From: Arctopsyche grandis
Taxonomy: Eukaryota; Arthropoda; Insecta; Trichoptera; Hydropsychidae
NCBI RefSeq assembly: GCF_051622035.1
Contig: NC_135364.1
Coordinates: 19,743,001-19,807,000, forward strand
Length of the DNA stretch: 64,000 nucleotides
Reading direction: 5' to 3'
The position numbers were made by a program, and so were the translations under genes. Shown one piece after another: positions 37,310 to 63,195 of the stretch (positions are counted from its first letter, which is position 1; each line of letters opens with the position of its first letter). The notes beneath the pieces are model-generated. The model had not been told where the DNA came from, ran no database searches, and worked only from the letters and a program-made list of their open reading frames with translations.

Positions 37310-37427
37310 CTTTACAAGTTATATTTTCCTCCAATGATAAGTTAACAGTTCCTGTTACAGTGTCTCCAAAATAAAGCAAACCAATTGGAAGATTATTAAA
37401 TGTAATATTACAATTATTTAATGTCAT
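37310..37427 (-). pseudogene. Isolated first exon of an alpha-arrestin
   Basis: Encodes 39 residues (MTLNNCNITFNN, then LLYFGDTVTGTVNLSLEENI), clearly homologous to exon 1 of the neighbouring arrestins, with an intact frame and a TATCTTATC motif 87 bases upstream at 37514-37522. No later exons follow before the BTBD gene. The donor reads AAAG|GCGAGT, not the GT found in its paralogs. GC donors can work, but with no exon 2 in reach it is best read as a gene remnant. Confidence 0.75.
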
Positions 37428-37730
37428 TATTTTCGAACGAATTTTCCAACATAGTGAACAAGGAACTACGATAAAATAATACGTACATACATACATATAT
37501 ACAAACTACCAAATATCTTATCAAAAAGACGAACAATACATATATGTATTGCGATTAGATAGAATGATAGAATTAGGGCAATAATGGTTTAGATGAGATA
37601 AATGAAGGAATGTCCTGTTGTGGTTCTTTAGAAAAAAATTAATATCAATTAATTAATAAAATAATAAAACTAATATAATTCAAAATCATATATTTTGAAA
37701 TTAAAATAGCTCGATACTTAAAATATATTG

Positions 37731-37736
37731 TTTATT
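37731..37736 (-). terminator. Poly-A signal of arrestin A
   Basis: AATAAA on the minus strand, 47 bases after the stop at 37783. Confidence 0.5.
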
Positions 37737-37782
37737 AATATGCATGTTCTATTCAGAGTCCAGGGTATTTTTTGCATTTAAG

Positions 37783-39370
37783 TCAAGTGGTATTAAATTT
37801 ATAAACTGGATACTTCGGAGAAAAATCACTGCTACGATCCCATTCCTCGTGAGTCTCTTCCATTCTTTTCTCTACTAATACTTCTTCATAAGTGGGAGGC
37901 ACTAAAATTATGTAATAATAATGCATTTTTTGCTTTATATATGTACATACATAAAATAGTTACTGTCAAGGTAAGGTCAAATATATTTTTCATACTCGAT
38001 TCATAAGCAGGAGGTCCACTGGGATCATACGATGACGTTGATTGTTCCACAATTCCTTGATAATTTGTGTGTATAGGAATAGTTCCAATTATTATTGGTG
38101 TTATGGATTTCAAATTAGCGCGAAATCCTGATACAACAGCAGTAGCCTTCCAATTAAAAACAAATAAATTATATATATGTATATGATGTATTATATGTTT
38201 TAAATAAATTTTAAATATCACACTGTTAGATCGTATTTAACTTCAACTATTGAGGATGTCATAAAGCTAGATGGAGGTAATGCTGGCACACAAAGAGGCA
38301 ATTCAAAAGATTTTTCTTCTCCACAGTCAGCTCCGCCACCTGAGCAGCGCGATACTTTCGAGATTTGCATCCTTTGATTTGTGTAAGGATACGTGGCGGT
38401 AAATAAAATTGTCTAAAATGTTTATTCATGATTTGGTGATAAAGGTTAAGTAAAATTTGATGGAATATTATTTAAAAAATGTCATTGATATATGTACTTT
38501 AACCAATCCAATTTTTACACTTTCAATTTTGATTTTGCTATTATTTTTTAAATTACAAATAACCGGTATACATTGCCCGGAAACAAAACCAGATGATGGA
38601 ATTTGTATTGTCATTAATAATGTTCCTTTTGACAAACACAAAAAGTAAAAATTCTTCAAAGATTCATTTAAAACAGACAGCTGAAAAATTTATGTTTTTA
38701 TTAATAACAATTTTTATTTATGCATCTAAATTTATGAATAAACCTATACGTTACATGTATGCTGTGCATCAGGTTGAGATCAGCATGCGAGAGGACGGTG
38801 AACAGAATTTTAAAACTGAGATCAATTCTAGAAGGTCGTATCAGTGTTACTGCTGCTGTGTATCTCACATATCCATACATACCCTCACAAGATGATGGCA
38901 GATTTGACGGTAGAATAATTGTAAACTTGAAAGTATGGCTACCCGCAAGTAGATCTGACATACCCGCTAAAAATATACGAACATGTTGTGTGATTTGTAC
39001 GATTAGTTTCCTACCTGTTACTAAATATTTATACATATGTACTTTGCATATGCTGATCAGCCATTAAGTTGTTGTGTGACGTGAAATATATTTCATTTCC
39101 AGAAAAGTAAATTGTTTTACGATTTTTTCCTGTTCCTTGTACTTCAGACCAACCACATTTGGACTCTCCAGATATTTTTAACATTAAAGCTGTAACGTTT
39201 ATTCTGTATCAACTATATTCTATCAAAATAAAATCATATTCGATACACTTACCTTTACATATTTTATTTCTCTCTAATATCAAGTTAACCGTTCCTGTGA
39301 CCGTTTCACCACAATAAAATACACCATTTGGACGATTGTCAAATTTAATACTACAATTATTTAGCTCCAT
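37783..39370 (-). CDS. Alpha-arrestin A (ARRDC-like)
   Basis: Seven exons, complement(39370..39253, 39189..39043, 38966..38755, 38680..38498, 38412..38224, 38146..37996, 37901..37783), 372 residues, all phases consistent. Exons 1-3 give the arrestin N-domain (FYCGETVTGTVNL, YGYVRYTAAVTL, FTVLSHADLN). Exons 4-6 give the C-domain (FVSGQCIPVICNLKNNSKIK, CVPALPPSSF, ITPIIIGTIPIHT). The tail has two PPxY motifs, GPPAYES and PPTYEEV, separated by an intron. Alpha-arrestins link membrane cargo to NEDD4-family ligases through PPxY-WW contacts; the cargo is unknown. It lies at the 3' end of the tandem cluster, and a TTATCTTATC motif lies 83 bases upstream of the ATG. It looks intact. Drosophila also has several clustered genes of this kind, so this is an arthropod-type expansion. 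Confidence 0.9.
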
Positions 39371-39452
39371 TCTACACTCAGAGAATTTAACAATGAAATA
39401 TAATAAGGAACTATATACAATGAAATAATCTGAAATGTGTACATTCCTAGTA

Positions 39453-39463
39453 TTATCTTATCT
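39453..39463 (-). promoter_or_regulatory. GATA-type motif upstream of arrestin A
   Basis: TTATCTTATCT, i.e. AGATAAGATAA on the coding strand, holding two overlapping WGATAR cores, 83-93 bases from the ATG. Equivalent motifs precede the other cluster members. Confidence 0.6.
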
Positions 39464-39637
39464 GAAAAATTTTACATTTTGTGATTAAATATCCAAATGT
39501 AATCTGATTAATATATTGAATGATTCATATTACAGATATTGACACAGGAATCTCTTGAAATACCAAACAGAGTTGCTTTTTATTATGCTTCTTAAGAAAT
39601 TGATAATATTAAAATGATCATGGAATTACATAACTAT

Positions 39638-39835
39638 TGCTAAGCGATTGTTTGATAGTATAAAGGTCGTGGGTTTAATTCCCAGGCGGGATCGAAAAAT
39701 TTATTCGATTTTCTCAATGAGTATGAATACATAAATTGTTGATAGCAAGATCTGGATGGTGATCCCGATCCAGATCGACCGTCTCCTATTACAGTTTGCC
39801 AATTTATCCAACTTGATTCCACGATCGTTGCGCGC
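39638..39835 (+). mobile_element. tRNA-derived SINE (family 2 or diverged family 1)
   Basis: Head TTGCTAAGCGATTGTTTGAT, B box GTGGGTTTAATTCCC, then GATCCAGATCGACCGTCTCC and ACAGTTTGCCAATTTATCC. Shares the GATCGACCGTCTCCT word with the 13535 copy. Lies between arrestins A and B. Confidence 0.65.
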
Positions 39836-39879
39836 TTAATAAAATCGCACTCGATCGTTAGTTAGTTAGCTTTAGTCGT

Positions 39880-40084
39880 TTCTGCGCGCGCACATTAATA
39901 CGGGAGGAAAAGTCTGTTCCTCTTGTTCCTGTTGTATCCTGCTCGCGCAAATTAAGTGAGTATGTACCGATTACCATGCACCCTTTTGTTTGATCTTTCG
40001 ACTTAAGATCTTTCGATTTTCGATCTTTGCCTTCCGATATTTGCGTTTTCGGTAATTTCACATTCTGGCTCGTCACGGAGACCG
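39880..40084 (+). mobile_element. Single arm of the 1260-type palindromic MITE
   Basis: Runs from GCGCGCGCACATTAATACGG to GGCTCGTCACGGAGACCGG and matches the right half of 1260-1634. The mirror-image half is absent. Confidence 0.75.
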
Positions 40085-40294
40085 GTTTATCTGTCGTGTT
40101 GTGTTGTTGGTGAGATGCTTGTAGTTAAGTGGTGTAGTGATACAAAAAAAGTTCTGGAGAGCCGAACTTATGTGTGTACATTTCTCCTCCCCCCTCTAAC
40201 TAAAATTTTTCGAATTGGTCAATATTGATTTTTCAAAACATTTTTATTTTTTGAAATGATTTTTGAAAATAAAAAATTAAATATGAGATAATAT

Positions 40295-40599
40295 TGTAAC
40301 GTAGAGATTAGGTGAGTGGCGCTCGTGGACAGATGGTTTACTAGCGCAGATCACCTGATCTTCCGTTCCCGCCAAAATGTTCTCTACGTATGAATGAGCC
40401 GTATGCAACGGCCAATGGGATCGTCCGACTCATCGACCAATAGTTATTGACCTCAAACATGTATAAATATGGGGCGCTCTCGAATTGGAAACCATTCCGA
40501 CCTGGAGCGCCGACGAGAGCAGACGAATAAACCGCTTCTACAAACCTCCTGCGTCTTTCTCTCCGATCCTGGAAGCCCCCTCTTCACGTCCACGCAACA
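40295..40599 (+). mobile_element. Solo-LTR-like sequence, 305 bp, probably Ty3/Gypsy
   Basis: Begins TGTAACGTAGAG and ends CACGCAACA, with a 4-bp direct repeat ATAT on each side (40291-40294 and 40600-40603). It contains a TATAAATA box near 40461 and an AATAAA near 40527, as expected for LTR promoter and poly-A signals. No internal retroelement sequence adjoins it. Confidence 0.7.
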
Positions 40600-40609
40600 A
40601 TATAAAGAG

Positions 40610-41440
40610 GCGTTTTTTTAGTTTAGTTTTCAGTTTTCTTCGAAAAATGTTAGCTAGGTACGAAAAACATATAACGAAAGCTTCCAATTTATGCTGATGT
40701 TCCATTTGAAAAAATTTCTAAATAGAGGTTGTATGTACGTCTATGTGGAGACTGGTGCAACCAGTTGTATGTAGATCAAGTATAGATGGGTGTTGGAGAG
40801 GACGATACACAGTAATTTTGACGAGGTTATTTATTTAATATTATAAATTGTATATGTAAGTTGAGCGAAGAAACGTAGCGTGAGTCTCTGCAGCTAACTG
40901 GTTCGACTGGAACACCGGTAGTTGAATAGGAATTCTGAGAAACTCTAGATATACCGAGAAAAACATTTGGTGCATGTAAGGGTCGTTTTTTGTTCTACAT
41001 TTTTTGTGGAATACACTTGTTCTATATTTTTACATTTTTAACAAAAGTTATATATTTTTATTTAAAAATACACATTATACATTTAAAAGGGGCGCACCGC
41101 ACCCGTCCCACTACACCACTGCGTTTCGCTGAGCACCCAATGATCGAGCGCGATTTTATTAAGCGTGCAATGGTCTTGTTACCAAAATATTAAATATGCA
41201 TACATTTTAATTAAAATGCACACAGGGCAAATTTTTAAGTGGAAAAACCAACCAATTGACGACTTTTAATAAAATTTTAATAAGGGTTCAGTTTTTTATC
41301 GAAATTACCCGAATGCCCAGTTATCATGATGGCACTGTCAATATTGGATGTATGTTTATCTAGAAATGTTAACTTTAATTACTATGAATCTCATTAAAGA
41401 TATGAACCTCATAATTTAATCATATAATAAAAAGTCAAAT
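40610..41440. other. Intergenic stretch between arrestins A and B
   Basis: AT-rich with no gene or clear repeat boundary. Confidence 0.4.
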
Positions 41441-41470
41441 TTATTTAATTTCATATATTAAGTCTATAAT

Positions 41471-43438
41471 TTATTTTCCTTTCTTCTCATTTGCATCAAA
41501 ACTATAAACTGGATATTTTGGAGAAAACTCGTTGCTATGATCCCATTCTTCGTAACTTTCTTCCAGTCTTTTTTCTACTAAGACTTCTTCATATGAAGGC
41601 GGCACTGAAATATATTCATATGTCAAAACTTTATCACGCTATATTTTATTAATGTTAAATTTAATTAAGAATTTAATATATTTCATACATAAATCATCAT
41701 AAGATGGGAGTGAATTGCTGGGATTGTGTGATGAGGTTGATTGTTCTGTATTTATTTGACGGTTAGTCTGCACTGGAATTGTTCCAATTATTATCGGGGT
41801 TACAGATTTCAAATTACCACGGATGCCTGATACAACAGCTGTGACCTATACATATTATAATGAAATAATTAAACATACATCCTACGTATAATAAATGAAA
41901 AAGTAAGTGGAATAGGAAAATACATATATTGGATGTTACATACATAGATTGGAATCAATTTCATTTGTATCCCTACAAGGGATTTTTAAATTGTTTTTAC
42001 AATAAATTTAAATGCTACTGAGGAGCAAATTTATACATGATTTAATATGAAGACTTTTATCATAATTAAATTTGAAATAGTTAGAAAATTATCAGTATTC
42101 CAAACATAAGTGATTCAGTCCTTACTATGTACATATTTTCAATTAAAAATGTAATAAGTGAATTATCTTCATACGTACATATATTTATATTTCAAATAAC
42201 TGACCTTTATATCATATTTAACTTCTATTACAGATGACGTTGTAAAACTAGTAGGCGGTAGTGGTGGTACACTCAATGGTAATTCCACAATTTTTTCCTC
42301 GCCACGCTCAGCTCCGCTACTAAGACAACGTGAAACTTTTAAAATTTGTTTCCTTTGCTTTGTATATGGAGACGTGGCAGTAAATATAATGGTCTATAAT
42401 AAATAAAATAACATATTTTTAAAAATGTGTAAAACAACATAATTTTTTAATTATAATATAGGCATAAATATTATATGTAAATTGAAAAAGTATATTTTTG
42501 TGTAAATTATTACAAAGAAATTTATCATACTTTGATTAAAACCACTTTTACGCTTTCGACCTTTATTTTACTGTTGTTTTTTAATTCACATATAACTGGT
42601 ATACACTGTCCGGAAACAAATCCTGAATATGGGAGTTTTACAGTCATGTGCAATGTTCCTTGTTTTGAAATTAAAGAGTAAAAATTCGTCATCGATTCAA
42701 TTACCATAGGCAGCTAAAATCAAGATTTCGCGAATTACCATTTCACAATATTTTTAATATATGTATGTTCAAAAGTATATTGTATATACACATTACCTTT
42801 ACATTGGGCATTACATTAAGATCGACATGTGATAAAACAGTGAATGATATAATGTAGTAGAGATTCCTTTTAAATGGTCTCTTCAGTGTCGCTTTAGCCG
42901 TGTATCTCACATACCCGTAGTTACCCTCACAAGACGATGGTAAATCCGGTGGTAGAAGAAATGTAAAATTGAATTTGTGATTACCTGCAAGGAGGTCTGA
43001 TCCACCTGCTGTAAAATATGTATGGTTTTTTGAACTGCAATTTGACAATATTAAACAAGTTCAAATTATTCATACTCTGCATATGTTGCTCTGACATCAA
43101 GTTATTATATGATTTAAAGTATGTTTGATTTCCAACGAAATGAACTTTTCTTCGTTTCTTCCCAGCACCACGTTTCTCAGACCACCTACACTTGGCCTCC
43201 CCAGACACTTTTAACATTAAAGCTGTAAAAAAAAGTTTAAAATTTTCAATCTATAAAAATTTTATACCCACATTTTCAACATTTAAATAGTAAAATCATA
43301 AGAAAATACATAGAACTCACCATTACATATTTTATTGCTCTCTAACAGTAAGTTAACAGTTCCTGTCACAGTTTCACCACAATAAAAAACACCATTTGGA
43401 CGATTTTCAAATGCGATACTACAGTTCCTTAACGACAT
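41471..43438 (-). CDS. Alpha-arrestin B (ARRDC-like)
   Basis: Seven exons, complement(43438..43321, 43222..43076, 43008..42797, 42713..42531, 42393..42205, 41845..41689, 41604..41471), 379 residues. Same exon layout and phases as copy A. Diagnostic blocks include FYCGETVTGTVNL, YGYVRYTAKATL, GFVSGQCIPVIC and TPIIIGTIPVQT. The first tail motif has lost its PPxY form (SLPSYDD in place of PPAY). The second (LPPSYEEV) is kept, so it should bind WW domains with a single site. Intron 5 (41846-42204) is longer than in its paralogs. A TTATCTTATC motif lies 100-109 bases upstream of the ATG. It looks intact. Confidence 0.9.
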
Positions 43439-43537
43439 AACGTACCTATATATAACTTTCTATGAATCTATGTATATTTATGTTAAAAAACGAGTAGCTA
43501 CAATGATTTTACGTGACACATAAATATTTTGTATGTA

Positions 43538-43547
43538 TTATCTTATC
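43538..43547 (-). promoter_or_regulatory. GATA-type motif upstream of arrestin B
   Basis: TTATCTTATC 100-109 bases upstream of the B start codon. The surrounding 110 bp is nearly copied at 48735-48845. Confidence 0.6.
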
Positions 43548-44397: not shown

Positions 44398-44546
44398 TTA
44401 TTACTATTATATTACTGTTTTTACCTAAATAAATAAAATAACAAATTATCAAATAAATTATTTGGCATTAAAATTACTATTATATTACTGTTTTTACCTA
44501 AATAAATAAAATAACAAATTATCAAATAAATTATTTGGCATTAAAA
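44398..44546. repeat. 73-bp tandem duplication
   Basis: The segment from TTACTATTATATTACTG (44401) to GGCATTAAAATT repeats exactly with a period of 73 bases. It touches the last exon of arrestin pseudogene C. Confidence 0.85.
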
Positions 44547-45780
44547 TTATAAACCGGATATTTTGGAGGATATTTATTGCTATGATCCCAATCCTCAAGA
44601 CTTTCTTTCAATTTTTTTCCACTAAAACTTCTTCATAAGAAGGAGGCACTGAAATAATATTACAATAAAATTGTATTATATGCATACATTTATATTATAA
44701 ATAAAAAAATCAAACTAATAAGCTTGTAAATAAATACATGTTTTTGGTCATAATAGCATGTGTATACAAGTCGGAGGTATGCGTGCAGTTCCAACAATAA
44801 GCACACAATTATTATTATAAATAACAGAATGAAGATAATAAAAAGCTTGTAAAAAAATGAGGTAAACTATAGCATACTCAATTCATCATGAAGCGTGGGG
44901 TTCGCTGGTGGTGCGCTGGGTTCATATAATGATGTTGATTGTTCTGTAGCCCTTTGAAGATTCGAGCGTATAGGAACTATTCCAATCATGATTCCAGAAG
45001 AGCATTTTACATATATTCTAATGCATACCTGATACAATGGCTGTAATCTGTTATTTAAAATGTATAAACATCTACTGTTTTATGCTGAATCCATATATGG
45101 GTCAGTGGCACTCAGCTTCATATTGTATGTATGCGCATACATATGTACATATGTCTAGTACATTTAGCAAAGCCAAAATCAAAAGCATACATGTGAATTT
45201 AATTTATAAATATGTTTCTATAGTTACTGACAAGATTTATATTTAAATATATTACATGCCCGTTCTCTGTCATAATTTTTCTGATTATATCGTAATATAT
45301 GTAGTCGGATATATGTAGTTGTACAAAATTGACATCACCAAATATTAATCATATTCTTTGTTTATTTCCTTTAATATTTATTATATAGTCAGCTATTCCC
45401 AATGCAATTTCAAACCAATGATGAAATTATTCCCTGTGAAATTTCATTACATAGCAAACTGTAAAAAAGTTCATCACAATGAAGTAATTACATTTGATAT
45501 TGAATCTGCTATTGGAAGTTTATTATTTACACAGGGTACAAAACACAACAGTAAAACTACAGCACTCTAATTATAAAAGTTAACTAATGCTACGAATATT
45601 CACAGTGAAAAATACATTCAGGTAAAGCTAGAAACGAAAATAAATAATATATGTACCTAGTAAATGTGTACATTATATACATAGGTATAATGCAATAACA
45701 CACCATTAGTTCGTATTTGATTTCTACCATCGATATCATATAACTAGATGGAGGTAATGCCGGCAAAAACTGGTAATGTT
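44542..45780 (-). pseudogene. Arrestin pseudogene C
   Basis: Three degraded exons in gene order. An exon 5 end is at about 45703-45765 (LPPSSYMIS, VEIKYELM). An exon 6 remnant is at about 44880-45010, with the PPxY degraded to PPANP. Exon 7 at 44542-44648 reads PPSYEEVLVEK, then shifts frame in an A-run, then WDHSN and KYPVYNFN in the other frame. Exons 1-4 are missing. It lies between intact copies B and D. Confidence 0.85.
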
Positions 45781-45789
45781 TCAAGTATG

Positions 45790-46590: not shown

Positions 46591-46599
46591 CAGTAAAAT

Positions 46600-48433
46600 T
46601 CATTTCTCTTTCTCTTTTTCAATACTAAAATTATAAACTGGATATCTTGGAGAAAATTCGTTGCTATGATCCCACTCTTCGTAACTCTCTTCCATTCTCT
46701 TTTCAACTTCTACTTCTTCATAAGAGGGAGGCACTGAAATAATTTCACAACATTTTGTTACTTTATATTCAATCATTACTACAAAAGTGAGGTCAAATAC
46801 ATATTTCGTACTCAATTCATTGTAAGCGGGAGGTGCACTGGGATCATACGACGATGTTGATTGTTCTATGGTTGTTTGATAATTCGTGCGTATGGGAACT
46901 GTTCCAATTGTGACAGGGATAGTGGATTTCAAATCACTGTGCATACCCGAGACAACAGCTGTAATCTGTAAAGAAAATTTAGTTTTAGTGTTTTTGATTT
47001 CTTTTTTAAATATCTATATGATAATATCAGTTATTTAAAATATTACAATAACTTACTATTAATTCATATTTGACTTCTATTACATATGACGTCATGAAAC
47101 TAGAAGGAGGTAACGCTGGGACATACAATGATAAGTCAACAGTTTTTTCCTCTCCACGACCAACTCCATCACTTACGCGGCGAGCTACCTTTAAAGTTTC
47201 CGTTTTCGTTTTTGTTAATGGAGATGTGGCAGTATATTCAATTGTCTAAAATTGAAATACCAAATAATATAAATGTACTGTCAACCATAATATAAAACGC
47301 TGAATAACATCCTATAACTTTACGAAGATGTCAAAGCCTTCCAATTTTATAATAATATTTTATTATAAAATTGGAAGATTTAAGAATAATATTTTATTAT
47401 AAAATTGATGTCGAAGCCTTAGATAATTCTGTATTATAAACATAAATTAATGAGTAAATGTTTAAGTCATACTTTGATCAATCCTGCTTTCACGCATTCA
47501 ATTTTGACTTTACTATCATTTTTTAAATTGCACGTAAGTGGTATATACTGTCCGGAAACAAATCCTGAAAAGGGCATTTGTATTGTCATATACAACGTTC
47601 CCTTTTTAGCGCAAAAAAAGTAAAAATTCTTCTTAGTTTCATTTAAGATAGGCAGCTGAAATTTTTTAAGTTTATAAATAATACATAATTTCATTTCATT
47701 ATTAGATATGTACATATGTATATTTTGTACAAATTCTTACATGTAAATTTTACCTTTAGGCTGGGCATTCCATTGAGATCAATGTGCGACACAACTGTAA
47801 ATAAAGTTTTGTAGCACAGATCCATTTTGAATGATCTCTTAAGAGTAATTTTGGCAGTGTAGCGTACATATCCATAATAGCCCTCACAAGATGACGGTAA
47901 ATCTGATGGTAAAATAATTGCAAAATTGAATTTGTGATCGCCTGCAGTTAGATCCGATGTGCCTGCTAAAAATATTAAAATATTTTATGGGTTTTATATT
48001 TCAAAATCAAACATAACTTCAATGCATTAAAATATTCAATACTCTGCATATGCTGTTCTGCCATCAAGTTATTTAACGTTGTGAAATATTGTTGATGTCC
48101 GGAGTAACGAACTGTTCTACGATGTTTTCCAGATCCACGTGATTCAGTCCAGCTACAATGGGCCTTACCTGATATTTTTAACATGAAAGCTGTGAAGGGA
48201 AATCACCAAACCAGAATTGATTTAAAAAATAAGATGACAACGAATTCAATTGAATATCATGATTAATCCGTTTAATAACAACTATACAATAAAATATAAT
48301 TTGATCAATTCGACCTACCGCTACATACTTTATTGTTTTCTAATGTTAAGTTAACAATCCCTGTCACAGTTTCTCCACTGTAAAACACCGAATTTGGACG
48401 ATTAAATGTAATACTACAATTTTTCAATGACAT
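46600..48433 (-). CDS. Alpha-arrestin D (ARRDC-like)
   Basis: Seven exons, complement(48433..48319, 48189..48043, 47965..47754, 47655..47473, 47244..47056, 46965..46812, 46733..46600), 377 residues. Two PPxY motifs: APPAYNE at the end of exon 6 and PPSYEEV in exon 7. Key blocks are VFYSGETVTGIVNLTL, YGYVRYTAKITLKR, GFVSGQYIPLTCNLKNDSK, YVPALPPSSF and IPVTIGTVPIRT. Its last intron (46734-46811) is 78 bp and stop-free in frame, so retention would insert 26 residues between the PPxY motifs. It closely resembles copy E, including intron sequence, so the two are a recent duplicate pair. Upstream GATA-type sites are TTATCTAATC at 48537 and GATAATC near 48560. Confidence 0.9.
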
Positions 48434-48536
48434 GTTTTCTTGACAAAATTTTTCTATACATAAATCTCGGATGGATTTAATTAAACTGAAGCTAAAAAAC
48501 GATTTCACGTCATCTGGACATGTGGAATGAGTACAT

Positions 48537-48567
48537 TATCTAATCGGCAATATCACATGAGATAATC
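48537..48567 (-). promoter_or_regulatory. GATA-type motifs upstream of arrestin D
   Basis: TTATCTAATC, 104 bases upstream of the ATG, is a one-base variant of the cluster motif, followed by GATAATCT in the opposite direction about 15 bases further out. Confidence 0.5.
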
Positions 48568-48649: not shown

Positions 48650-48729
48650 CTTCCTGTCACAGTTGCACCACAATAACATTCACCATATGGATGATTTTCA
48701 AATATGATACTACAGTTCCTTAATGACAT
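48650..48729 (-). pseudogene. Isolated arrestin exon 1 relic (B-like)
   Basis: Reads MSLRNCSIIFENHPYGECYC then GATVTG before homology is lost. It matches exon 1 of arrestin B, and about 110 bp of upstream sequence including the TTATCTTATCT motif (48831-48841) also matches the B promoter. No later exons follow before copy D starts. It is a duplicated promoter plus partial exon. Confidence 0.8.
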
Positions 48730-48859
48730 TACGTACCTAGATATAGCTTTCTATGAATCCATATATATTTAAGTAAAAAATGAGGAGCTACAATAACTTT
48801 ACGTGACACATACATAAATATTCTGTATGTTTTATCTTATCTATTATATATCCCTATTT

Positions 48860-49638: not shown

Positions 49639-49649
49639 AGTAAACACAT

Positions 49650-50552: not shown

Positions 50553-52304
50553 TTATATTTCTTTCTTCTTTTCCACATCAAAATTATAAACTGGATATCT
50601 CGGTGAAAATTCGTTGCTATGATCCCACTCCTCGTGACTCTCCTTCATTCTCTTATCTACTGCGGCTTCTTCATAAGAGGGAGGCACTGAAATAATTTCA
50701 CAACATTTGGTTACTTTATATTTAAACATTACTATAAAAGTGAGGTCAAATACATTTTTCGTACTCATTTCATTGTAAGCGGGTGGTGCACTGGGATCAT
50801 ATGATGATGTTGGTTGTTCTATGTATGTTTGATAATTCGAATGTATGGGAATTGTTCCAATTATGATTGGGGTAATAGATTTCAAATTAGAATGCATACC
50901 AGATACAACAGCTGTAATCTATAAAGAAAATTTAGTTTTATTGTTTTTGATTTTTTTTTTAATATCTATATTACAATATCAATTAATTACAATTCTACAA
51001 TAACTTACTATTAATTCATATTTGACTTTTATAACGGATGACGTTTTAAAACTAGAAGGAGGTAACACTGGTACATGCAATGTTAAATCAACAGTTTTTT
51101 CCTCTCCACGACCAACTCCATCACTTTCGCGGCGGGCCACTTTCCAGGTTTCTGTTTTCGTCTTTGTTAAAGGATGTGTGGCTGTATATACAATTGTCTA
51201 CGATTGAAATATCAGATAAATGTACAGTCAACCATACTATAATACGCTGAATAGCATCCTATAACTTTATGAAGATGTTAAAGCCTTCCAATGTTATAAT
51301 AATATTTTGAGAAGGCTTAGTTAATTCTGTATTATAAACATAAATTAATGAGTAAATATTTAAGTCGTACTTTGATCAGTCCTGCTTTCACGCATTCAAT
51401 TTTGACTTTACTATCATTTTTTAAATTACACGTAACTGGCATATACTGTCCAGAAACAAATCCTGAAAAAGGGATTTGAACTGTCATATACAACGTTCCC
51501 TTTTTAACGCAAAAAAAGTAAAAATTCTTCTGAGTTTCATTTAAGATAGGCAGCTGAAATTTTTGAAGTTTATGAACAATACATAATTTCATTTCATGAT
51601 TAGATACGTACATATATTTTGTACAAATTCTTACATGTTGATTTTACCTTTAAGGTGGGCATTCCGTTGAGATCAATGTGCGACACAACTGTAAAAATAG
51701 TTTTGTAGCACAGATCCATTTTAAATGATCTCTTAAGAGTAATTTTGGCAGTGTAGCGTACATATCCATAATAGCCCTCATAAGATGACGGTAAAGCAGA
51801 TGGTAAAATAATTGTAAAATTGAATTTGTGATCGCCTGCAATTAGATCCGATGTGCCCGCTAAAATTTTTAAAATATTTTATGGGTTTTTTATTTTAAAA
51901 TCAAGCTTAATTTAAATGCGTTAAATTAAAATATTCAATACTCTGCATATGCTGTTCTGCCATCAAGTTATTTGATGTTGTGAAATATTGTTCATTTCCA
52001 GTGTAAGTAACTGTTTTTTCATCGTCTCCAGTTCCTTCTGTTTCAGACCAGCTACAATGGGCCATACCTAATAAATTTATCATTAAAGCTGTAAAGAAGG
52101 ATCACCAGAGATTTTAATATATTGTATTTTTAAAATACTTAAAATAACTTAAATAATTTTTCAAAAAAATAATGATTAATTTTACTAACCATTACATAGT
52201 TTATTTTTGTCTAACGTCAAGTTAACAGTTCCTGTTATAGTTTCTCCACTGTAATATACTGCATGTGGGCGATCAAATATAATACTACACTTTTTCAATG
52301 ACAT
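50553..52304 (-). CDS. Alpha-arrestin E (ARRDC-like)
   Basis: Seven exons, complement(52304..52190, 52088..51942, 51859..51648, 51553..51371, 51197..51009, 50918..50765, 50686..50553), 377 residues, the same length as D. Two PPxY motifs, APPAYNE and PPSYEEA. The last intron is again 78 bp, stop-free and in frame. It differs from D mostly in exon 2 (the GTGDDEKTVTYTGNEQYF region), where D has basic residues (GKHRRTVRYSG). Blocks YYSGETITGTVNLTL, GFVSGQYMPVTCNLKNDSK and ITPIIIGTIPIHS are intact. A TTATCTTATC motif lies 73-82 bases upstream of the ATG. Confidence 0.9.
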
Positions 52305-52376: not shown

Positions 52377-52386
52377 TTATCTTATC
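52377..52386 (-). promoter_or_regulatory. GATA-type motif upstream of arrestin E
   Basis: TTATCTTATC, followed about 15 bases farther out by AGATAAT in opposite orientation, the same paired arrangement as in D. Confidence 0.6.
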
Positions 52387-52619: not shown

Positions 52620-54507
52620 TATCATCATCATCATCATTTACAGCCATTCGCCATCCACTGCTGGATGAAGGCCTCTCCAACACGCTTCCACTCGTCTCTG
52701 TTTTGCGCAACACTCATCCATCTCATTCCGCACATTTTCCTAATTTCGTTCACCCATCTTCCTTGCGGTCTTCCTTTTACTCTTTTGCCTTCTCTCGGGT
52801 ACCATTCAAGCACTTCTTTTGTCCACCTTTCGTCCATCCTCCTAGCTACGTGACCCGCCCATTGCCATTTCAATCTCTTCACTCTATCCACTATGTCCAC
52901 TACCCTTGTCATATTTCTCACCCACGTGTTCCGCTTCCTGTCTTTCCTCGTTATGCCAAGCATACAGCGTTCCATACTTCTTTGAGTGCATTGGATTTTA
53001 TTTTGCATCTTGGCGTTCAGTGTCCAAGTTTCACATCCACACGTCATCACTGGCAAAACGCATTGATCAAAGATCCTTTTCTTCAGGCAGAGTGGCATTT
53101 TTGATTTAAAAACAGCATTCATCCGTCCAAATGCACTCCATCCTAATTTCATACGTCTCTTTATCTCTTCATTTTTACTACCAGACATGTCAATTATTTG
53201 ACCTAAATATAAATAATTATTTACTACTTCTACTGGTTTATCATCTAAGGGGATGCTATCAGGCATGCAATAACTATTGAACATTAGTTTAGTCTTATCT
53301 ACGTTAATTTTTAATCCTACTTTTCTACTTTCCCTGTCCAGCTGTGTTAGTCTGATAAGTAGGTCAGCTGAATCACGAGCTACTAAAACTATATCGTCTG
53401 CGAACCGAAGGTGACTCAAAAAGCGACCATTGATGCTTACTCCGGCTGTATCCCAATCCAATTTCCTGAAAACTCCCTCAAGCACCGCATTGAATAACTT
53501 GGGCGAGATTGTATCTCCTTGTCTTACTCCTTTTCCTATACTAAATCTATCTGTACCTGAAAAAATTTTAACCGAAACTGTGGCATTCTTATATATTGCA
53601 GCTAACAGTCCCACATAGGGATCCGGCACTCCCTTTGTTTTTAGAGCGTTAAGTACTACATTATGACTAACTGTATCGAAGGCTTTCTCATAATCGACGA
53701 AACCTAGGCACAATGGCCGTTGATATTCGTTGGCGCGCTCGATTAGTTCGCCAACTACTTGGAGGTGGTCCATTGTGCTGAAATTTGCCCTAAACCCTGC
53801 CTGCTCTATAGGTTGGTTCTCGTCGAGGATATTCTTCAGCCTTTCTGTAATAACCTTCGTGAAGAGCTTGTAGACCGCTGAAAGTAGACTAATGGGTCGG
53901 TAGTTCTTGATATCGCTTTTGTCGCCTTTTTTGTGTATTAAAATGATAGTTGCGTTATTCCATCCTTCTGGTATAGCTTGGTTCTGGATGCATTTGCTGA
54001 AAAGCCTAGCTAAGATATTAATTAGGGGGGGGGCCGCCACATTTTAGTAAGTCAATGGGAATATTATCTTCCCCTGGGGTTTTACCGTTCTTTGCAGTTT
54101 TTAGCGCGGCCTCTACTTCGCTAGGCAATACTGCAGGAACCCTTTGGCCGTATGTCGATTCCGGAACGGGAAATTGACCGTTGTTGTTCTCGTAAAGTTT
54201 TGCATAGAACGTATAAACTCTGTCTATGATCTCTTCTCTATTCCTAATTATTACTCCGCTCTCTGATCTGATTGCGATCATTTGGTTTTTGCCTAAGAAA
54301 AGATCTTGTTTGCACTTTTTCAGGCTACGGTTATTCTTAATGGTATTTTCTATTAGCTTGCTGTTAAAATCCCTGACATCCCTGACTATTCTCTTCTTAA
54401 TTTCCTTATTTACTAGATTGTATTCTTGCTTATTATTATCCCTATCTAACTTCCTTTTATGCTTAATTAGATTTTTGGTTTCCTCTGAAATTTTGCTTAG
54501 CTTAAGT

Positions 54508-54515
<8 letters not shown>
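52620..54515 (-). mobile_element. RTE-clade LINE, 5'-truncated
   Basis: The main frame at 52634-54040 has a reverse transcriptase (PISLLSAVYKLFTKVI, GFVDYEKAFDTVSHN, KGVRQGDTISPKLFNAVLEG, catalytic LRFADDIVLVA) and the RTE-type C-terminus (RLKWQWAGHVARRMDERWTK). Its upstream part continues in another frame (54018-54515), shifted at a G-run near 54026, so the copy is not translatable as one protein. No endonuclease domain is left; the 5' end stops at the TA repeat at 54509. A short (ATG)n-like 3' tail in minus-strand sense at 52620-52637 is typical of RTE elements. Confidence 0.9.

Positions 54516-54557
<42 letters not shown>
54509..54557. repeat. (TA)n microsatellite
   Basis: TA run between the truncated RTE and the hAT-like element. 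With the run at 55822-56063 it forms the two flanks of that element. Confidence 0.9.
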
Positions 54558-56067
<1,510 letters not shown>

Positions 56068-56083
56068 CTTTGACTTCACGGTA

Positions 56084-59064
56084 TCACTCTTTCATCTGAT
56101 CAATATATGAGGGGGGTGCTAAAATTGCAAAATAATAATTAATAAATTAAGTACTGATACCGAAAATATACAATAATAATCAAAATGTCCTACCAAATCT
56201 TTGACTAGTAGCAGAAATACGTGACGTTTCATCAGTATTGTTTAATGGAACTGTACCAATTACAATTGGTATATCAAAATCAAAGTTAGTGTGCATTCCA
56301 GTTACAACTATAGATACCTTAATAGATTTTATACATATACATATTAAATCAATAAAAAAATTCTATTTAATATTTACTAAATAAATTTTAAAAAAAATGT
56401 CTATTGTTACCTTTAATTCATAAGAAAAAACAATAATTGAGCATGTGTAACTAGTGGGTAATAGTTCGGGTATATCTAAGTGTGTTTCATATGTTTTATT
56501 TGCCTGTTTTTCTACTCCAGGACCAACCCATTTCGCTACTTTTATAATTTCCTTATTTTTCCGCTTAGAGGGAAAACTTGAATGATATACTATTGTCTGA
56601 AATTAAAAATATACACACATACATATATTATTACTAGACAATGCCAGTGTTGCTCCAGCTATTGAAAGTTGTAAAAAAACTGTAAAAAGCTTAATTGCCA
56701 AGAAACTTTGTAGTCTACATATGTATGTAGTCAAGTCACAGTACCGTGAGATGCTATACGAAATTTGGTTAGTGGCGTAGCTACCGCGCCCGCAGAACCC
56801 GCAATGCGGAGGGGCGCTGAGTCTTGGGGGGCGCCACAAAGCGGCGCGCCTTTTTTACTGATTTTTTAATTTGTTCTGTAATTTCTTTGTAATATTTTTT
56901 TTAAAAACCTCTAATTTTTCAACCTATTTGCATCTCGTTTTATTGTATGTACTATATGTACATACATTATTATATTTTGAATTCATCCTCATTGTGTAAT
57001 TGATCTATGCTAATAGGGCTAGAAGACTGTCGTCTTTTTCCATTTTTTGAACGTCAGTGCCATTTTTCAACCTATTTGCTGAGAATCCTCTCTTATTCTT
57101 GTATATTTACTTTATCTATGTTCGTAGTAACAATATATGAATATTTCTAATGAAATACAAGATGATGATCTTTACATATATATTGGACATGTGAAGCAGC
57201 TTCATGAGGATATGCAAGTTAGATTTAATGATATTATACATAAATCTAAATATTCCAAATAGGGTGATTGATCAATTTAGTGTGAATGTAATTGATATTG
57301 ATATCGAATTGCAAGAAATCAGAAACATCTGCAAGTCTAATATGAATGCACAAGTAAGATTCATATAAGAAACATCTAATATGAATGCACAAGTAAGATT
57401 TAAAATCAGTATAGATAATTTTTGGATCAGCACTGAAATAGCGAGTGTATTTCCACTTCTAGCTTACATCAGGCACAAAGATCACACTAAATTAAACTAT
57501 CTTTCAATTTATCACTTTCAATTTATTACTTATTTTCAATTTATTACTTTATTGACAATTTAATACTTATTTTCAATTTATTACTTATTTAACAATTTAT
57601 TACTTTATTATCAATTTATTACTTAAATCATTTTCTTATAACGAAAGATTGAAAATAATGAATCTCACTACATTGAAGACGAGAAGAATAAGAAGCCATT
57701 TAATCGTAGTCTTAAATATTAAATAATCATTATAATTGTCATATGTATGTCCAAACTTATTACTTTCAATGAAAAACTCATCTTAGAGGTCACTCCCTAA
57801 GACTCCAAAAAGAAAAAAAATGAATAAATTGATCAGAGATTCGTAAATAAGGTATGAATTATTAATTTGGAAAGTTATTTTGCTGTAAGGATAATAATAT
57901 AATATGAATATATGGGGGGGGGGGGGGGCGCCTGGAATTCGCTACGCCACTGAATTTGGTAGTTCTAAATATTGAAAACTGAAAATTTGCATAATGGACT
58001 AACAAACATTGATCTTCATATAGTAGATTTTCGTATGAAATGAAATGTGATTGTTTACTTACAATAATGATATTTACCTTAACGAGTTTTATTTTTACTG
58101 TTGCTATTTCAACTTTAGAATCATTCCGTAGACAATATTTTATAGGTAGTATTTGTCCAGATACATATCCCGAAACAGGAATTTCAAATTTAACGTCCAA
58201 AGAGCCTTTGTTCATCAGCAAAAAATTAAAATTTTTACTAAAAGCATTTTTAACGGGTAACTAGAACACAAGAATATTTGTACAATGCATATTTTCTAAA
58301 TTTTTAGATTTTGTATACAATATTTTAATATTACGTATACACAAGATTTATATTTTAGGCACATATACAACATTAAAATCATGTACATACTTGTACACTT
58401 GGAAGAGTATTCAAATCTACAACGGCGAGGACATTCAATACAAATTCACTCGTTGAATCAAACTTGAAGGGACGTTTTAGCACAATTTGTGCTTTGTATT
58501 TAACTTTTCCATGATTACCACGGAATGAAGAAGGTGCACTCCTTGGCAAAATGAATGAAAAAGGGAGACGGTGAACACCGGCTGTTAATTTTGCAGTGTC
58601 TAAAATCGAAATATATATAAGTATCACATATTTCTTCTAATATGTGTATAGTACAATATACATAGTTACAGTTTTCAGCATTAAATTTACCTGTTTGCTT
58701 TTGTATTAAGTTAGTTTGTGTTTCAAAGTATGTTTCTTTGGCTGTATAAGTTGTACTATCGTCATTAGAACCATCCGTCCACCTGCATTCAGCATATCCA
58801 AATATTTTTAATATGAGCTCTGAAATAAATTTGCAATATTTTTTATATGAATATATGTATTGTGGCAACAGTCAATATTAACAAACGTTTTAATAATGCA
58901 CAGGAAAATATTTTAGTAATACATTTAGTATAGGTCGACATGTTACCTTGTATTTTTTGTGATTTTTCCAAAGTTACAATTACATTTCCCGTCACCGTTT
59001 GACCTGCATGAATTACTCCTTTTTCGTAATTATGAAAACTTAGATCACACACTTTCGAAGACAT
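56084..59064 (-). CDS. Alpha-arrestin F, short-tailed
   Basis: Seven exons, complement(59064..58947, 58819..58691, 58599..58391, 58260..58078, 56596..56411, 56317..56194, 56118..56084), 327 residues. More diverged than the others: [20 protein letters not shown] in exon 1, [20 protein letters not shown] in exon 3, [20 protein letters not shown] in exon 4. The tail is short: exon 6 lacks a PPxY, and exon 7 is only 35 bp, [11 protein letters not shown] then stop, giving one PPxY. The usual acidic WD(H/R)S-PVY tail is absent, and a long TA repeat follows about 20 bp after the stop, so a repeat insertion may have shortened the tail. Intron 4 holds a hAT-like element (56770-57952). A TAATCTTATCT motif lies about 70 bases upstream. 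Confidence 0.8.
56770..57952 (+). mobile_element. hAT-like non-autonomous element in arrestin F intron 4
   Basis: Tips TAGTGGCGTAGC and GCTACGCCACTG with an exact 8-bp target duplication AATTTGGT (56762-56769, 57953-57960). Length is 1183 bp, with a G-run near the right end and several CAATTTATTACTTATTTT tandem units around 57500-57625. No intact transposase. Confidence 0.9.
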
Positions 59065-59132
59065 TGTTATTGTTATAATTCAACAAAACTGATTATTGAT
59101 ATACTGAGGTGTGCAACACGACCTTATTGGAA

Positions 59133-59143
59133 TTAATCTTATC
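59133..59143 (-). promoter_or_regulatory. GATA-type motif upstream of arrestin F
   Basis: TAATCTTATCT, 69-79 bases upstream of the F ATG; one base differs from the cluster motif and one WGATAR core remains. Confidence 0.5.
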
Positions 59144-59528
59144 TCGAATATGTATTATAAAAATTTTCCCCATCAGTCATACAGTCACCATATACATATG
59201 TGCATATATTCCAAGAAATGTTGAAACTTGTTTACAACTTCACAGCATAGTATTATTCATATCGTCACCGTTGCTTGAAGGTGAACGTGCGGTTGCGGTT
59301 ACTCATTATCGAAGTAAAACGTTACCCAAAGTAAAAACTTTTGTTTCGCGCACGTCAGTAAAATCTCGAACACGGAATATCTGGCACCTAAAAACTCCAT
59401 CAATCCACGCGAAATATTGTTCTAACGAGAACTCGAGTGTCAGAAATTCCGTATTCGTAATTTTTGTGGAACCATTTTTGCGATTGTGCGAATGGGATGT
59501 TTTCTGTACGACATTTTCCTGTGTAAAC

Positions 59529-59732
59529 GTCTGTTCATACCTATCCAGCACGACCCGAATCCTGCGAGTACGGACAGTATTCTTTAGTACAATCTATATG
59601 GACGCGCATGAATGCGTAAATGCGCATGGGCGAATGAAGTATGAATACGTCCATATAATGTATCAAAGAATACTATCCGCACTTGCAGGACACCTGCAGG
59701 ATACGGGTCGTGCTGGATAGGTATGAACAGAC
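59529..59732. mobile_element. 204-bp foldback element
   Basis: 28-base perfect terminal inverted repeats (GTCTGTTCATACCTATCCAG then CACGACCC) continue imperfectly inwards (CGAATCCTGC with GCAGGATACG). No clear target duplication. A related remnant is at 36863-36985. Confidence 0.8.
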
Positions 59733-59919
59733 CTTAACGAGTTTTTATGCGATAGGATACCGCGCGAGCGATTTTCGTAGCAGCGATTATCCTGGTAGTG
59801 ATTCACACCGAACTTTAGATACATATCCGAGTATATGTTTCGTTTTACTACATTTATAAATAAACATTTTTAAGAGTCTCATATCTTCAATCCTTTGATA
59901 TTTATCCCAATGCCAATGG

Positions 59920-60094
59920 CTACGTCCACACTACCGATATCTACACCCGATATTTACGAATTTTTCCATAACCAGTTCCTAAATAGCAACCACAGGTTGC
60001 AATATGGTAACTGGATATGGAAAATTCGAAAATATCGGGTGTAGATATCGGTAGTGTGTACGTAGATATCGGTAGTGTAGATATCGGTAGTGTC
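59920..60094. mobile_element. Foldback element with GATATCGGTAGTGT units
   Basis: The left arm starts CTACGTCCACACTACCGATA at 59920. The right arm is its near-exact inverse ending at 60065, followed by two further direct copies of GTAGATATCGGTAGTGT up to 60094. The central loop holds CAACCACAGGTTG. Confidence 0.75.
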
Positions 60095-60243
60095 GTCTCA
60101 GGTAATAGACGGCAATACAAAAAATAATTTACTTTTTATTTAATAGCAATCCATGACGATTCTAGCAAAACATTATACAAATTCTAGAGGAGAACCGAGT
60201 CTCCTTGAATACATTTTTTTTAATATTGTATTTATATCATGTA

Positions 60244-60513
60244 TGTGGGATTTTATGTGTGTGAGTGAATTATGTAATGAGTAATGTTGAGGAGTGATGT
60301 ACAAACAGTGGTACACGTGAGTGTACACTGTATGTGAGTTGGCAGAAGTGTGACGCCAACTGAGAGTTAGTAGACGAGCCGTTGGCCGGATGGCCACCGG
60401 TAGGTGCGTACGCGCACGTGTGTATACTTAATGTACAATAAACGTACATTGATGGACCAACATCGTCTTTCATTATCTCTCCCGCAATCCTCCCTATATC
60501 TTCGAACTCTACA
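60244..60513 (+). mobile_element. Solo-LTR-like sequence, 270 bp
   Basis: Begins TGTGGGATTTTATG and ends AACTCTACA, with 4-bp direct repeats TGTA at 60240-60243 and 60514-60517. An AATAAA is present near 60439. No internal retroelement sequence adjoins it. The family is not certain; 4-bp duplications and TG...CA ends fit Ty3/Gypsy. Confidence 0.6.
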
Positions 60514-60519
60514 TGTATT

Positions 60520-60880
60520 ATTCAGATTTTTTGAGATTCATAACAAAGCTTTTTCATTAAAAGGAATCGAGATTTAGAATTTGTCTGCTGCAAAAACTAT
60601 TGAAGTTAAATATGTTGTCAGTAAGACTATTACTTACATTATAGGAATAAACATGAAAAATCACAACCTGTGCATAATTTTTACATTGGAAACGAGGGAA
60701 TTCAGACGTTTATCAGTATTTGATGCCTTTTTTATTAACCTCTTCTTACTTTCACTTACGATCACTAGTCAAAATAAAGTAAAAAATTTGGCTATTATTA
60801 TGAATATATTCCGACAACAATTTTTCACATTGGCCACTGGCGTCAATATATATGGATTTAATAGAAGATATCAAGAAAAA
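60520..60880. other. Intergenic stretch between arrestins F and G
   Basis: AT-rich, with no recognisable domain in the plus-strand frame at 60581-60931. Confidence 0.4.
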
Positions 60881-60881
60881 T

Positions 60882-61260
60882 GGGTGACCGTGAAAAAGTC
60901 GAAAATATTCGTTTATCATGCATACATATGAAAAACGGTTAGTATATATATCAGTGGCGTGCGGTAAAACTCTCTCTCCCCCCGTCGTACATCCTCATTT
61001 AATTCGCGCGAGCAGGATACAACAGGAACAAGAGGAACAGGCTTTTCCTCCCGTATCCTGCGCGCGCACATTAAACAAGGCTGTGTGACAAAAAGAGAGA
61101 TAATTTCACCGCATGCCACTGATATACATATATTATACATATATGTATACATAGTACCGTTTACCATGCACCCTTTTTTTTTGATCTTTCGATTTTCGAT
61201 CTTTGCCTTCCGATATTTGCTTTTTCGACCTTTTCACTTTCGGTCCCATGAGGTAGACCC
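60882..61260. mobile_element. Composite nested MITE (copy 2) with 9-10 bp target duplication
   Basis: Outer ends GGGTGACCG and GGTAGACCC. It is flanked by AAGAAAAATG at the left (overlapping the first G) and again at 61261-61270, giving a 9-10 bp duplication. The inner element at 60952-61121 has tips CAGTGGCGTGCGG and CCGCATGCCACTG and contains part of the 1260-type palindrome. The right edge is 38 bp downstream of the arrestin G stop codon, so the element probably lies in that gene's 3' UTR. Confidence 0.8.
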
Positions 61261-61298
61261 AAGAAAAATGTATGTGTCTAAAATGAAACAATGCACAT

Positions 61299-63125
61299 TT
61301 AAATATTTCTTTTTATTGTTTTAAAAACTTCAGTGTTTTTTATTGACTCGACAATATTGTCTACTGCAGAAGTTTTAATTATTTCTGGTTCAGGTTCGTT
61401 TGTTGAATATTTATAAACGGGATATCTGGGAACAAAATTTGGAGAATAGTCCCACTCTTCATATTTTCCTTTCATCCTCTTCTCAACAACGACTTCTTCA
61501 TATGATGGAGCAACTTAAATTTAATTGAAAAGTTATATAATAATTTTAGTAAGTGAAAAATGTATGACTGTTCAATATATTTTTACCTATGTCTGTGTAT
61601 GCTGGAGGTGCTGTAGGATCTCTGGATGATGTTCCTTGATCTTGAAATGGGCTGAAAGGTACGGTGCCAATCGTAATGGGAACACTGAATTTCTTACTAC
61701 CATGAACTCCTGATCCCGTCACAAGAAACTAAAAATTAAAAATGTGAGTATCTTATAAACACCACAGATAAATAATTACGATTGAATTATTATAAAAACC
61801 TTAAGTTCGTATTTAACTTCAATAATAGAACACGTGAGAAAAGTCGATGGTGGTATAACAGGTATTTTCAAAGATATGATAATAATTTTTTCTTCTTCTT
61901 TCGCAACACCATCATTTTTGCATTGAGCTACATTTTTTGATTCTACCTTTTGATTACTTTGAGGACATGTGGTTTGAAATGTGGTTATCTGGAAATAATC
62001 GCTCAAATAATATCGTAAATAAATTTTCTGTAATATATAAAATTAGATTACTCACTTGCACTAGAGAAATTTTAACTTCTTCAATATTCACTTTGGATAA
62101 GTTTTGTAGATAACATTTTATAGGTATTTTCTGCCCTGGAACGTAGCCAGAAACTGGAGACTCGATTGTTATCTTTAAAGTTCCCATGCTTGCAAGCAAA
62201 AAATGAAAATCTTTCGATGATACGTGTTTGATAGGTAACTGAAAAAATATTATAATTATGTCAGAGTAACAAAATGAAAACAATAATTTGATACAACAAA
62301 AACTCATATGTACATATGTAGGACTCAATTAATGAAGGGACACGTAAAACAGGTGTCAATGAGACTCGTTCTGGTGAGCCATATTTATTCCTCAATGCCA
62401 TTGAGCTAATTTAATCATTTATACATGCACTTTTCTGGGTTTGAAAACTAAATCCCACGTGTATGTATATACAAATAACCATTGAAAAATACTTACACGG
62501 ACATAAGACAGAGAGTTGAGATTAATATTTGTGATAACCATAAAAGCAATTTTGTAAAATTGGTCTGGATAGTTTAATCTTTTGTAGATAACTTGCATAG
62601 TGTATCGTACACAGCCATAAGTGCCTTCAAACGATGATGGCAGATTTTGGGGAAGTATAAATGAAAATCCATAATCATGCTTTCCTGCCATAAGCTCCAC
62701 TTGCTCATCTAAATTAACAAAAAATAGCTTTAAAAAGTTCACTTTTTAGGGAAGTATTTATAAAAACTTGAACATAAAAAGTCATAGTTATCACTATTAG
62801 CTTGTGGAGATATCAAATCCATATTAAAATCCAAATATATTTCTCTTCCCGTAAACTCTGTCTGTCTTTTTGTTTTACCGCTACCATAGTTTTCCATCCA
62901 TTTGCAGTTAGTTTCTCCAGATACTCTCACTGTGAGCGCTATAAAATAATACATTTAACATTCGAATCTTTTTGTTGGTACAATTTACATAAAATTAAAC
63001 ATTATACCTTGACATTTTTTCTTTTTATCGAGTACCAAACTGACAAATCCAGACACATTCTCTCCATTATAGTAAACGTTTTGGGAACGGTTGTTGAAAA
63101 TTATACTGCACTTTTTTAATGACAT
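61299..63125 (-). CDS. Alpha-arrestin G (ARRDC-like)
   Basis: Seven exons, complement(63125..63008, 62938..62795, 62708..62497, 62238..62056, 61988..61800, 61728..61587, 61513..61299), 400 residues, the longest copy. Blocks: VYYNGENVSGFVSLVLDKKK, EGTYGCVRYTMQVIYKR, SGYVPGQKIPIKCYLQNLSK, VPITIGTVPF. The first tail motif is intact (APPAYTD), but the second has become APSYEEV, so one PPxY remains. Beyond the usual WDYSPNFVPRYPVYKY segment there is an extra tail of about 33 residues (EPEPEIIKTS and onwards to a basic end, TIKRNI). Exon 5 is rich in Lys/Glu. A TTATCTTATCT motif lies 60-70 bases upstream of the ATG. It looks intact and is the 5'-most cluster member in the window. Confidence 0.9.
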
Positions 63126-63184
63126 TGTGACTCAAATCTTGCGAACGAATTGCGCGACTAACATTAGGTACTGACATTCAACGA

Positions 63185-63195
63185 TTATCTTATCT
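63185..63195 (-). promoter_or_regulatory. GATA-type motif upstream of arrestin G
   Basis: TTATCTTATCT, 60-70 bases upstream of the ATG; a further AGATAAG occurs near 63221. Confidence 0.6.

What the first reader, a model, noticed from the sequence alone, without database searches (positions are those of the whole stretch)
37310..63195. A shared GATA-type motif precedes every first exon of the arrestin cluster
All eight arrestin first exons in the window (six intact genes and two isolated exons) have TTATCTTATC or a one-base variant on the plus strand (GATAAGATAA in gene sense) 60-115 bp upstream of the ATG: 37514, 39453, 43538, 48537, 48831, 52377, 59134 and 63185. The surrounding sequence is otherwise diverged in A, F and G, so the motif looks selected. 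Copies D and E also have a second, inverted GATA site about 15 bp further out. GATA factors bind WGATAR; joint control, for example in gut or fat body, is my inference.
Basis: partly seen in the sequence, partly recalled or inferred. Interest (0 to 1): 0.72.

Follow-up and report, generated by a model that had tools for sequence, protein, structure and literature searches.

The report
Shared double-GATA box in arrestin promoters
A family of duplicated arrestin-type genes keeps the same ten-letter GATA-like sequence just before each first exon examined, even where the rest of the upstream DNA no longer looks alike, which suggests the copies are still switched on by the same kind of regulator; it is a solid but fairly ordinary example of a conserved promoter element.

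Summary
All eight alpha-arrestin first exons in the window have GATAAGATAA (five exact, three with one change), in gene sense, starting 69-112 bp before the ATG. Exact copies are rare: 2,199 in 475.7 Mb, none elsewhere in the 144 kb scanned. Arrestin X and nine P450 upstream regions have no sense copy within one mismatch. F and G are saturated at synonymous sites against most members, and flanks are alike on both sides only for C-Dx and D-E, so descent alone explains it poorly. It is the single best shared 10-mer for nine, seven and six sequences; 0/100 shuffles and 0/400 neutral simulations match it, though smaller subsets are weak. Best reading: a promoter-proximal tandem GATA site under purifying selection. 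GATA binding is inferred; co-expression, tissue and start sites were not testable. Eight copies are not eight independent cases: C/Dx and D/E are recent pairs, A and Dx are relic exons.

The parts
37513..37522 (-). Double-GATA box of relic exon A (GATAAGATAT in gene sense), -95 from ATG
37311..37427 (-). Isolated first exon A; open frame, but GC instead of GT at the expected donor and no following exons found; relic
39453..39462 (-). Double-GATA box of gene B (exact), -92 from ATG
37789..39370 (-). Alpha-arrestin gene B, seven exon matches (splice junctions not checked one by one)
43538..43547 (-). Double-GATA box of gene C (exact), -109 from ATG
41480..43438 (-). Alpha-arrestin gene C, seven exon matches
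44534..45766 (-). Orphan 3' half of a further arrestin copy (exon 5, 6, 7 matches); no first exon found
48536..48545 (-). Double-GATA box of gene D (GATTAGATAA), -112 from ATG, with inverted TTATCT 20 bp further out
46606..48433 (-). Alpha-arrestin gene D, seven exon matches
48832..48841 (-). Double-GATA box of relic exon Dx (exact), -112 from ATG
48652..48729 (-). Truncated first exon Dx; its upstream region resembles that of C, so a recent copy of it (inference)
52377..52386 (-). Double-GATA box of gene E (exact), -82 from ATG, with inverted TTATCT 20 bp further out
50556..52304 (-). Alpha-arrestin gene E, seven exon matches
59134..59143 (-). Double-GATA box of gene F (GATAAGATTA), -79 from ATG
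56084..59064 (-). Alpha-arrestin gene F; last exon ends [15 protein letters not shown], 20 bp before a (TA)n tract
63185..63194 (-). Double-GATA box of gene G (exact), -69 from ATG; further GATA sites at -114, -102, -94
61401..63125 (-). Alpha-arrestin gene G, seven exon matches

Best explanation
GATAAGATAA is a promoter-proximal regulatory element made of two overlapping direct-repeat GATA-factor sites (WGATAR, 5 bp apart). It was present before the duplications that made this alpha-arrestin clade and has been kept by purifying selection in gene sense, 69-115 bp before the ATG, in the seven genes found with an identifiable first exon in this clade (B-H), and still stands before two relic first exons. 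Most likely a GATA-family zinc-finger factor binds it close upstream of the transcription start and gives the copies a common expression domain. Shown: presence, position, orientation, rarity, conservation beyond the flanks. Inferred: GATA binding, activation, shared tissue.
For: 9 of 9 first exons found have it within one mismatch, all in sense. A genome search with an H protein made of exons 1-4 listed seven other first exons, all in the window. The exact word occurs 2,199 times in 475.67 Mb; 0 other exact copies in 144 kb or in 75 kb of P450 loci. It is the only word within one mismatch in 9/9, 7/7 and 6/6 upstream sets; 0 of 100 shuffles reach that in each set. Neutral simulation on an approximate tree: 0 of 400. 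F and G synonymous sites saturated against most members (pS mostly 0.71-0.83, F-H 0.66); flanks alike on both sides only for C-Dx and D-E. Each copy keeps at least one perfect WGATAR although A, D, F and H carry a change in the 10-mer and E has a non-W base just before it. Without a sense copy within one mismatch: arrestin X within 300 bp of its ATG; the upstream parts of the four other arrestin loci held; 9 P450 upstream regions.
Against: No binding, expression or start-site data. Small sets are weak: B,F,G,H 10 of 100 shuffles reach 4 of 4 by count and 3 of 100 by rarity; E,F,G 4 and B,F,G 2 of 100, with shifted words best; F,G,H 40 of 100. Intron controls of the same genes reach 5 of 6 with AT-rich words, so the count alone is a modest signal. 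Four further flank pairs reach z 3-4 on one side (A-Dx, C-D, F-Dx, E-G). Relics A and Dx keep the motif, which shows that inheritance alone can preserve it for a while. X, which lacks it, is not resolved as outside F and G. Two of the four other arrestin loci (L015, L016) have antisense one-mismatch hits upstream. The search missed Dx and X's first exon, so a diverged first exon of the clade could have been missed. Six of the nine P450 controls are from one tandem cluster.
Confidence: 0.72

Rival explanations
1. The box acts as (or doubles as) the core promoter: a GATA sequence standing where a TATA box would be, about 30 bp before the start of transcription, bound by TBP and perhaps also by a GATA factor, as recalled for the chicken beta-globin -30 GATA box.
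For: ATGs 17-32 bases after the box start in 8 of 9 copies (not F) suggest that transcription starts further downstream, between box and ATG (inference). A TCA lies 30-39 bases after the box start in 5 of 9 (B, C, Dx, E, F). No TATA-like word within 60 bp upstream in 6 of 9. Fixed orientation fits a directional element.
Against: The spacing to the first TCA is loose (18 to 68 bases) and TCA is common by chance. TATA-like words exist in C, Dx and F. No start sites mapped. The planned genome-wide test against initiator-like words did not complete by the server (last try).
Confidence: 0.12
2. Shared descent only: the copies duplicated together with their promoters and the motif is a leftover without selection.
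For: C-Dx and D-E share flanks; D-E dS 0.18, other pairs among B, C, D, E, H 0.8-1.3, not saturated; the relics A and Dx keep the motif; subsets of only the most diverged genes are weak.
Against: F and G are saturated at synonymous sites against most members and each still matches within one mismatch; most flanks unlike; 0 of 400 neutral simulations; far-upstream controls of the same genes share only 3 of 6 (E's stretch there lies partly in an inserted element).
Confidence: 0.1
3. A conserved element that is not a GATA-factor site, for example for another factor that reads an A-rich 10-mer, or an element read in the 5' untranslated RNA.
For: The word is conserved as a 10-mer, not as two free sites; no binding data.
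Against: The changes keep one perfect WGATAR every time, and further WGATAR sites are about twice as dense upstream (16 in about 2.6 kb against 2.9 per kb; copies not independent). The G before ATAAG is not preceded by a constant AG, so it is not a 3' splice site.
Confidence: 0.06

Closest known systems
Upstream GATA words (TGATAAG / GATAAGA) of worm and fly genes
   Same: Same core near gene starts; in worms TGATAAG is ranked 5 with window 0-600 bp and an orientation bias, and the GATA word GATAAGA is the only significant overlap between the worm and fly lists (PMC551538, passages read).
   Different: Here a fixed tandem pair with 5 bp period, 69-115 bp from the ATG, shared by a tandem paralogue family.
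GATAe and a GST cluster in Helicoverpa armigera (PMC10587110, passages read)
   Same: Gene cluster; GATAe activates reporters of the two member promoters tested.
   Different: Many scattered predicted sites there (15 or 10 in one promoter); experimentally tested there, not here.
Insect alpha-arrestins: 12 of Drosophila, among them CG18744-CG18748 (PMC10945707, passages read); honeybee mKast (PMC5417555, passages read)
   Same: Alpha-arrestins with arrestin N and C domains; PPxY motifs given for the alpha-arrestin clan.
   Different: No promoter element in the passages read; mKast is almost entirely brain-restricted, so tissue cannot be carried over. Orthology to the window genes was not tested.
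Chicken beta-globin -30 GATA box (recalled, from no call)
   Same: GATA word possibly in the TATA position.
   Different: No start sites or TBP/GATA binding shown here.

Membership tests
GATA-factor cis-element | WGATAR core | tested here: met
   9 of 9 copies have at least one perfect WGATAR in the box; both halves perfect in 4 of 9 (B, C, Dx, G)
GATA-factor cis-element | Conserved at these promoters beyond background | tested here: met
   weak for small subsets
GATA-factor cis-element | Bound by a GATA factor | not testable with these tools
   needs ChIP or gel shift
GATA-factor cis-element | GATA-factor genes present in this genome | not tested
   PF00320 search not answered
Alpha-arrestins (ARRDC type) | Arrestin_N and Arrestin_C domains | tested here: met
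   3 of 3 proteins given (E, F, H; exons joined by hand) above Pfam cut-offs; best solved relative of E is ARRDC3
Alpha-arrestins (ARRDC type) | PPxY motifs in the C-terminal tail | tested here: met
   By eye: at least one in each of the six window genes (B PPAY, PPTY; C PPSY; D PPAY, PPSY; E PPAY, PPSY; F PPSY; G PPAY). H: none clear
TATA-substituting GATA box | Located 25-35 bp before mapped start | tested here: inconclusive
   only initiator-like words as proxy

The most novel reading that the evidence does not exclude
The double-GATA box is a core-promoter element that replaces the TATA box for a whole paralogue family, tying start-site choice to a GATA factor, so that every new duplicate carrying 120 bp of upstream DNA inherits the same expression programme, including a copy 9 Mb away.
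Probability: 0.12. Interest if true: 0.5.

Novelty: new member of a known kind. Interest (0 to 1): 0.34.

Why it matters
It gives a compact, testable case of a minimal cis-element that survives while most of what surrounds it turns over in a tandemly duplicated gene family. It also points to the likely class of regulator and the approximate promoter position of alpha-arrestins whose expression was not examined here.

Tried and rejected
De novo search for a second shared 10-mer after masking the box: none in at least n-1 sequences. Idea that the box is a 3' splice site (B reads TTTTTCAG before it): rejected, most other copies do not end in AG there. Multiple alignment with MAFFT puts the box out of register for F and G and for B against C and Dx, so anchoring was used instead; the flanks carry too little signal. 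Window-wide enrichment with one mismatch is not significant. An ACGT word downstream of the box in six of nine copies was noticed after the fact and not tested. Literature: listings only, capped where noted: 20 of 72 shown; 20 of 40; 4 of 4; 7 of 7; 3 of 3; 4 of 4; 12 of 647; 5 of 5; 10 of 54; none of the titles shown was on this combination. Four of the listed papers were read in passages. The globin -30 GATA papers are recalled, not found.
Full report
Setting. The window is C10:19743001-19807000 of a 475.7 Mb genome in 189 contigs. The organism was not identified; I take it to be an insect by inference, not from a test. On the minus strand lies a tandem cluster of alpha-arrestin genes. Exon matches place six genes (B, C, D, E, F, G), two isolated first exons (A and Dx) and an orphan 3' half between C and D; splice junctions were not checked one by one. 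The exon blocks used have no internal stop. E, F and H proteins match Pfam Arrestin_N and Arrestin_C above cut-off (3 of 3 given), and E's best solved relative is ARRDC3.

Observation. GATAAGATAA or a one-base variant precedes 8 of 8 first exons in gene sense, with its first base 69-112 bp before the ATG. Five are exact (B, C, Dx, E, G) and three have one change (A, D, F). With one mismatch the window is not enriched overall (17 against 12.5 expected, 16 of 100 shuffles reach 17). In the 144 kb scanned there were 16 other one-mismatch hits (0.26% chance for a 47-offset span on one strand) and no other exact hit. Genome-wide the exact word occurs 2,199 times, the reversed word 3,337 times. Five exact copies within 23.7 kb compare with 0.11 expected, a figure that treats duplicated copies as independent.

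A genome search with the arrestin domain gave 12 matches (the tool says such counts are lower bounds): the six window genes, X, H, and one each on C8, C1, C4 and C9. H lies 9.3 Mb away on the same contig and has GATTAGATAA at -115 in sense. A protein search with H exons 1-4 listed seven other first exons, all in the window; it missed Dx and also X's first exon, so a diverged first exon elsewhere could be missed. X (6 kb beyond the window) is the one other arrestin whose first exon I could place; its 300 bp upstream has no WGATAR. For the other four (L013-L016) the first exon was not found; on the upstream side of the held 10-kb stretches there is no sense-strand hit within one mismatch, but L015 and L016 each have an antisense one. 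Of 20 P450 loci fetched, nine have N-terminal matches; taking the first in-frame Met, 0 of 9 have a hit in either orientation within 300 bp. Six of these nine are from one tandem cluster, L024's start is uncertain, and L020, L022, L025 and L027 have more than one candidate Met.

Is it only common descent? Synonymous divergence: D-E 0.18; the other pairs among B, C, D, E and H 0.78-1.33; F and G saturated against most others (pS mostly 0.71-0.83, F-H 0.66). Flanks anchored on the box are alike on both sides only for C-Dx and D-E; four other pairs (A-Dx, C-D, F-Dx, E-G) reach z 3-4 on one side. So the nine copies represent about seven lineages, of which A is a relic, as is Dx beside C. De novo, GATAAGATAA is the single best shared 10-mer for nine, seven and six sequences, and 0 of 100 shuffles reach it each time; for B,F,G,H alone 10 of 100 do. 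Control stretches from the same genes: introns reach 5 of 6 with AT-rich words, far-upstream stretches 3 of 6 (E's far-upstream stretch lies partly in an inserted element). With words weighted by rarity, seven and six lineages give 0 of 100 each, but smaller sets are weaker: B,F,G,H 3 of 100; E,F,G 4 and B,F,G 2 (shifted versions of the word best); F,G,H 40 of 100. A neutral simulation without indels, on a tree set by hand from the dS values with A placed by guess, gave 0 of 400. The tree does not settle whether X lies outside F and G, so loss in X is possible.

What it may be. The word is two WGATAR sites in direct repeat, 5 bp apart. Each of nine copies keeps at least one perfect site: both in B, C, Dx and G; the first only in A and F; the second only in D, E and H. 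Other WGATAR sites in the nine 300-bp upstream regions number 16 (about 6 per kb against 2.9 per kb in the 144 kb), 14 of 16 in the opposite orientation; copies are not independent. This fits a GATA-factor site with redundancy between the halves. ATGs 17-32 bases after the box start in 8 of 9 copies suggest that transcription starts between box and true ATG (inference), so a core-promoter role is possible; initiator-like words are too loosely spaced to decide. In six of nine copies (A, C, D, Dx, E, H) an ACGT lies 33-38 bases after the box start; seen after the fact, possibly inherited, and absent in B, F and G.

What is known. GATA words are among the conserved upstream words of worms and flies (PMC551538, passages). 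GATAe activates reporters of two promoters of a moth GST cluster (PMC10587110, passages). Drosophila has 12 alpha-arrestins in the set of PMC10945707 (passages) and honeybee mKast is almost brain-restricted (PMC5417555, passages), so gut or fat body cannot be assumed here. No paper on this promoter element appeared in the listings I saw (several lists were capped).

On re-reading the calls I mended: ATGs after the box in 8 of 9 copies, not 7; the shuffle result for B,F,G,H; the one-sided flank similarities; the limits and of the P450 control; the end of gene F (56084).

Verdict. A real, apparently selected, promoter-proximal double-GATA element of one alpha-arrestin clade; a new member of a known kind. 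Joint regulation is likely but untested.

Noticed in passing
window 44534-45766 (-): Orphan 3' half of an arrestin gene (exon 5-7 matches) between C and D, with the first exons missing; with A and Dx this makes three gene fragments in the cluster.
   Followed up: partly
window 55822-56063: A 242-bp (TA)n tract begins 20 bp after the stop of gene F, whose tail is shortened to a single PPSY motif.
   Followed up: partly
L012 6543-6800: Gene H, 9.3 Mb away, lacks a clear last exon; its tail after exon 6 looks degenerate, so H may have lost the PPxY tail or be decaying.
   Followed up: no
window 52634-54040 (-): An open frame of 468 aa that looks by eye like a reverse transcriptase, about 250 bp beyond gene E's GATA box.
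   Followed up: no
upstream regions of A, C, D, Dx, E, H: An ACGT word lies 33-38 bases after the start of the GATA box in six of nine copies, not in B, F or G; seen after the fact, too short for the 10-mer search, and may be inherited.
   Followed up: partly
genes D (46606-48433) and E (50556-52304): D-E dN 0.11 against dS 0.18, a high ratio for a recent pair, by eye concentrated in exon 2; relaxed or positive selection not tested.
   Followed up: no
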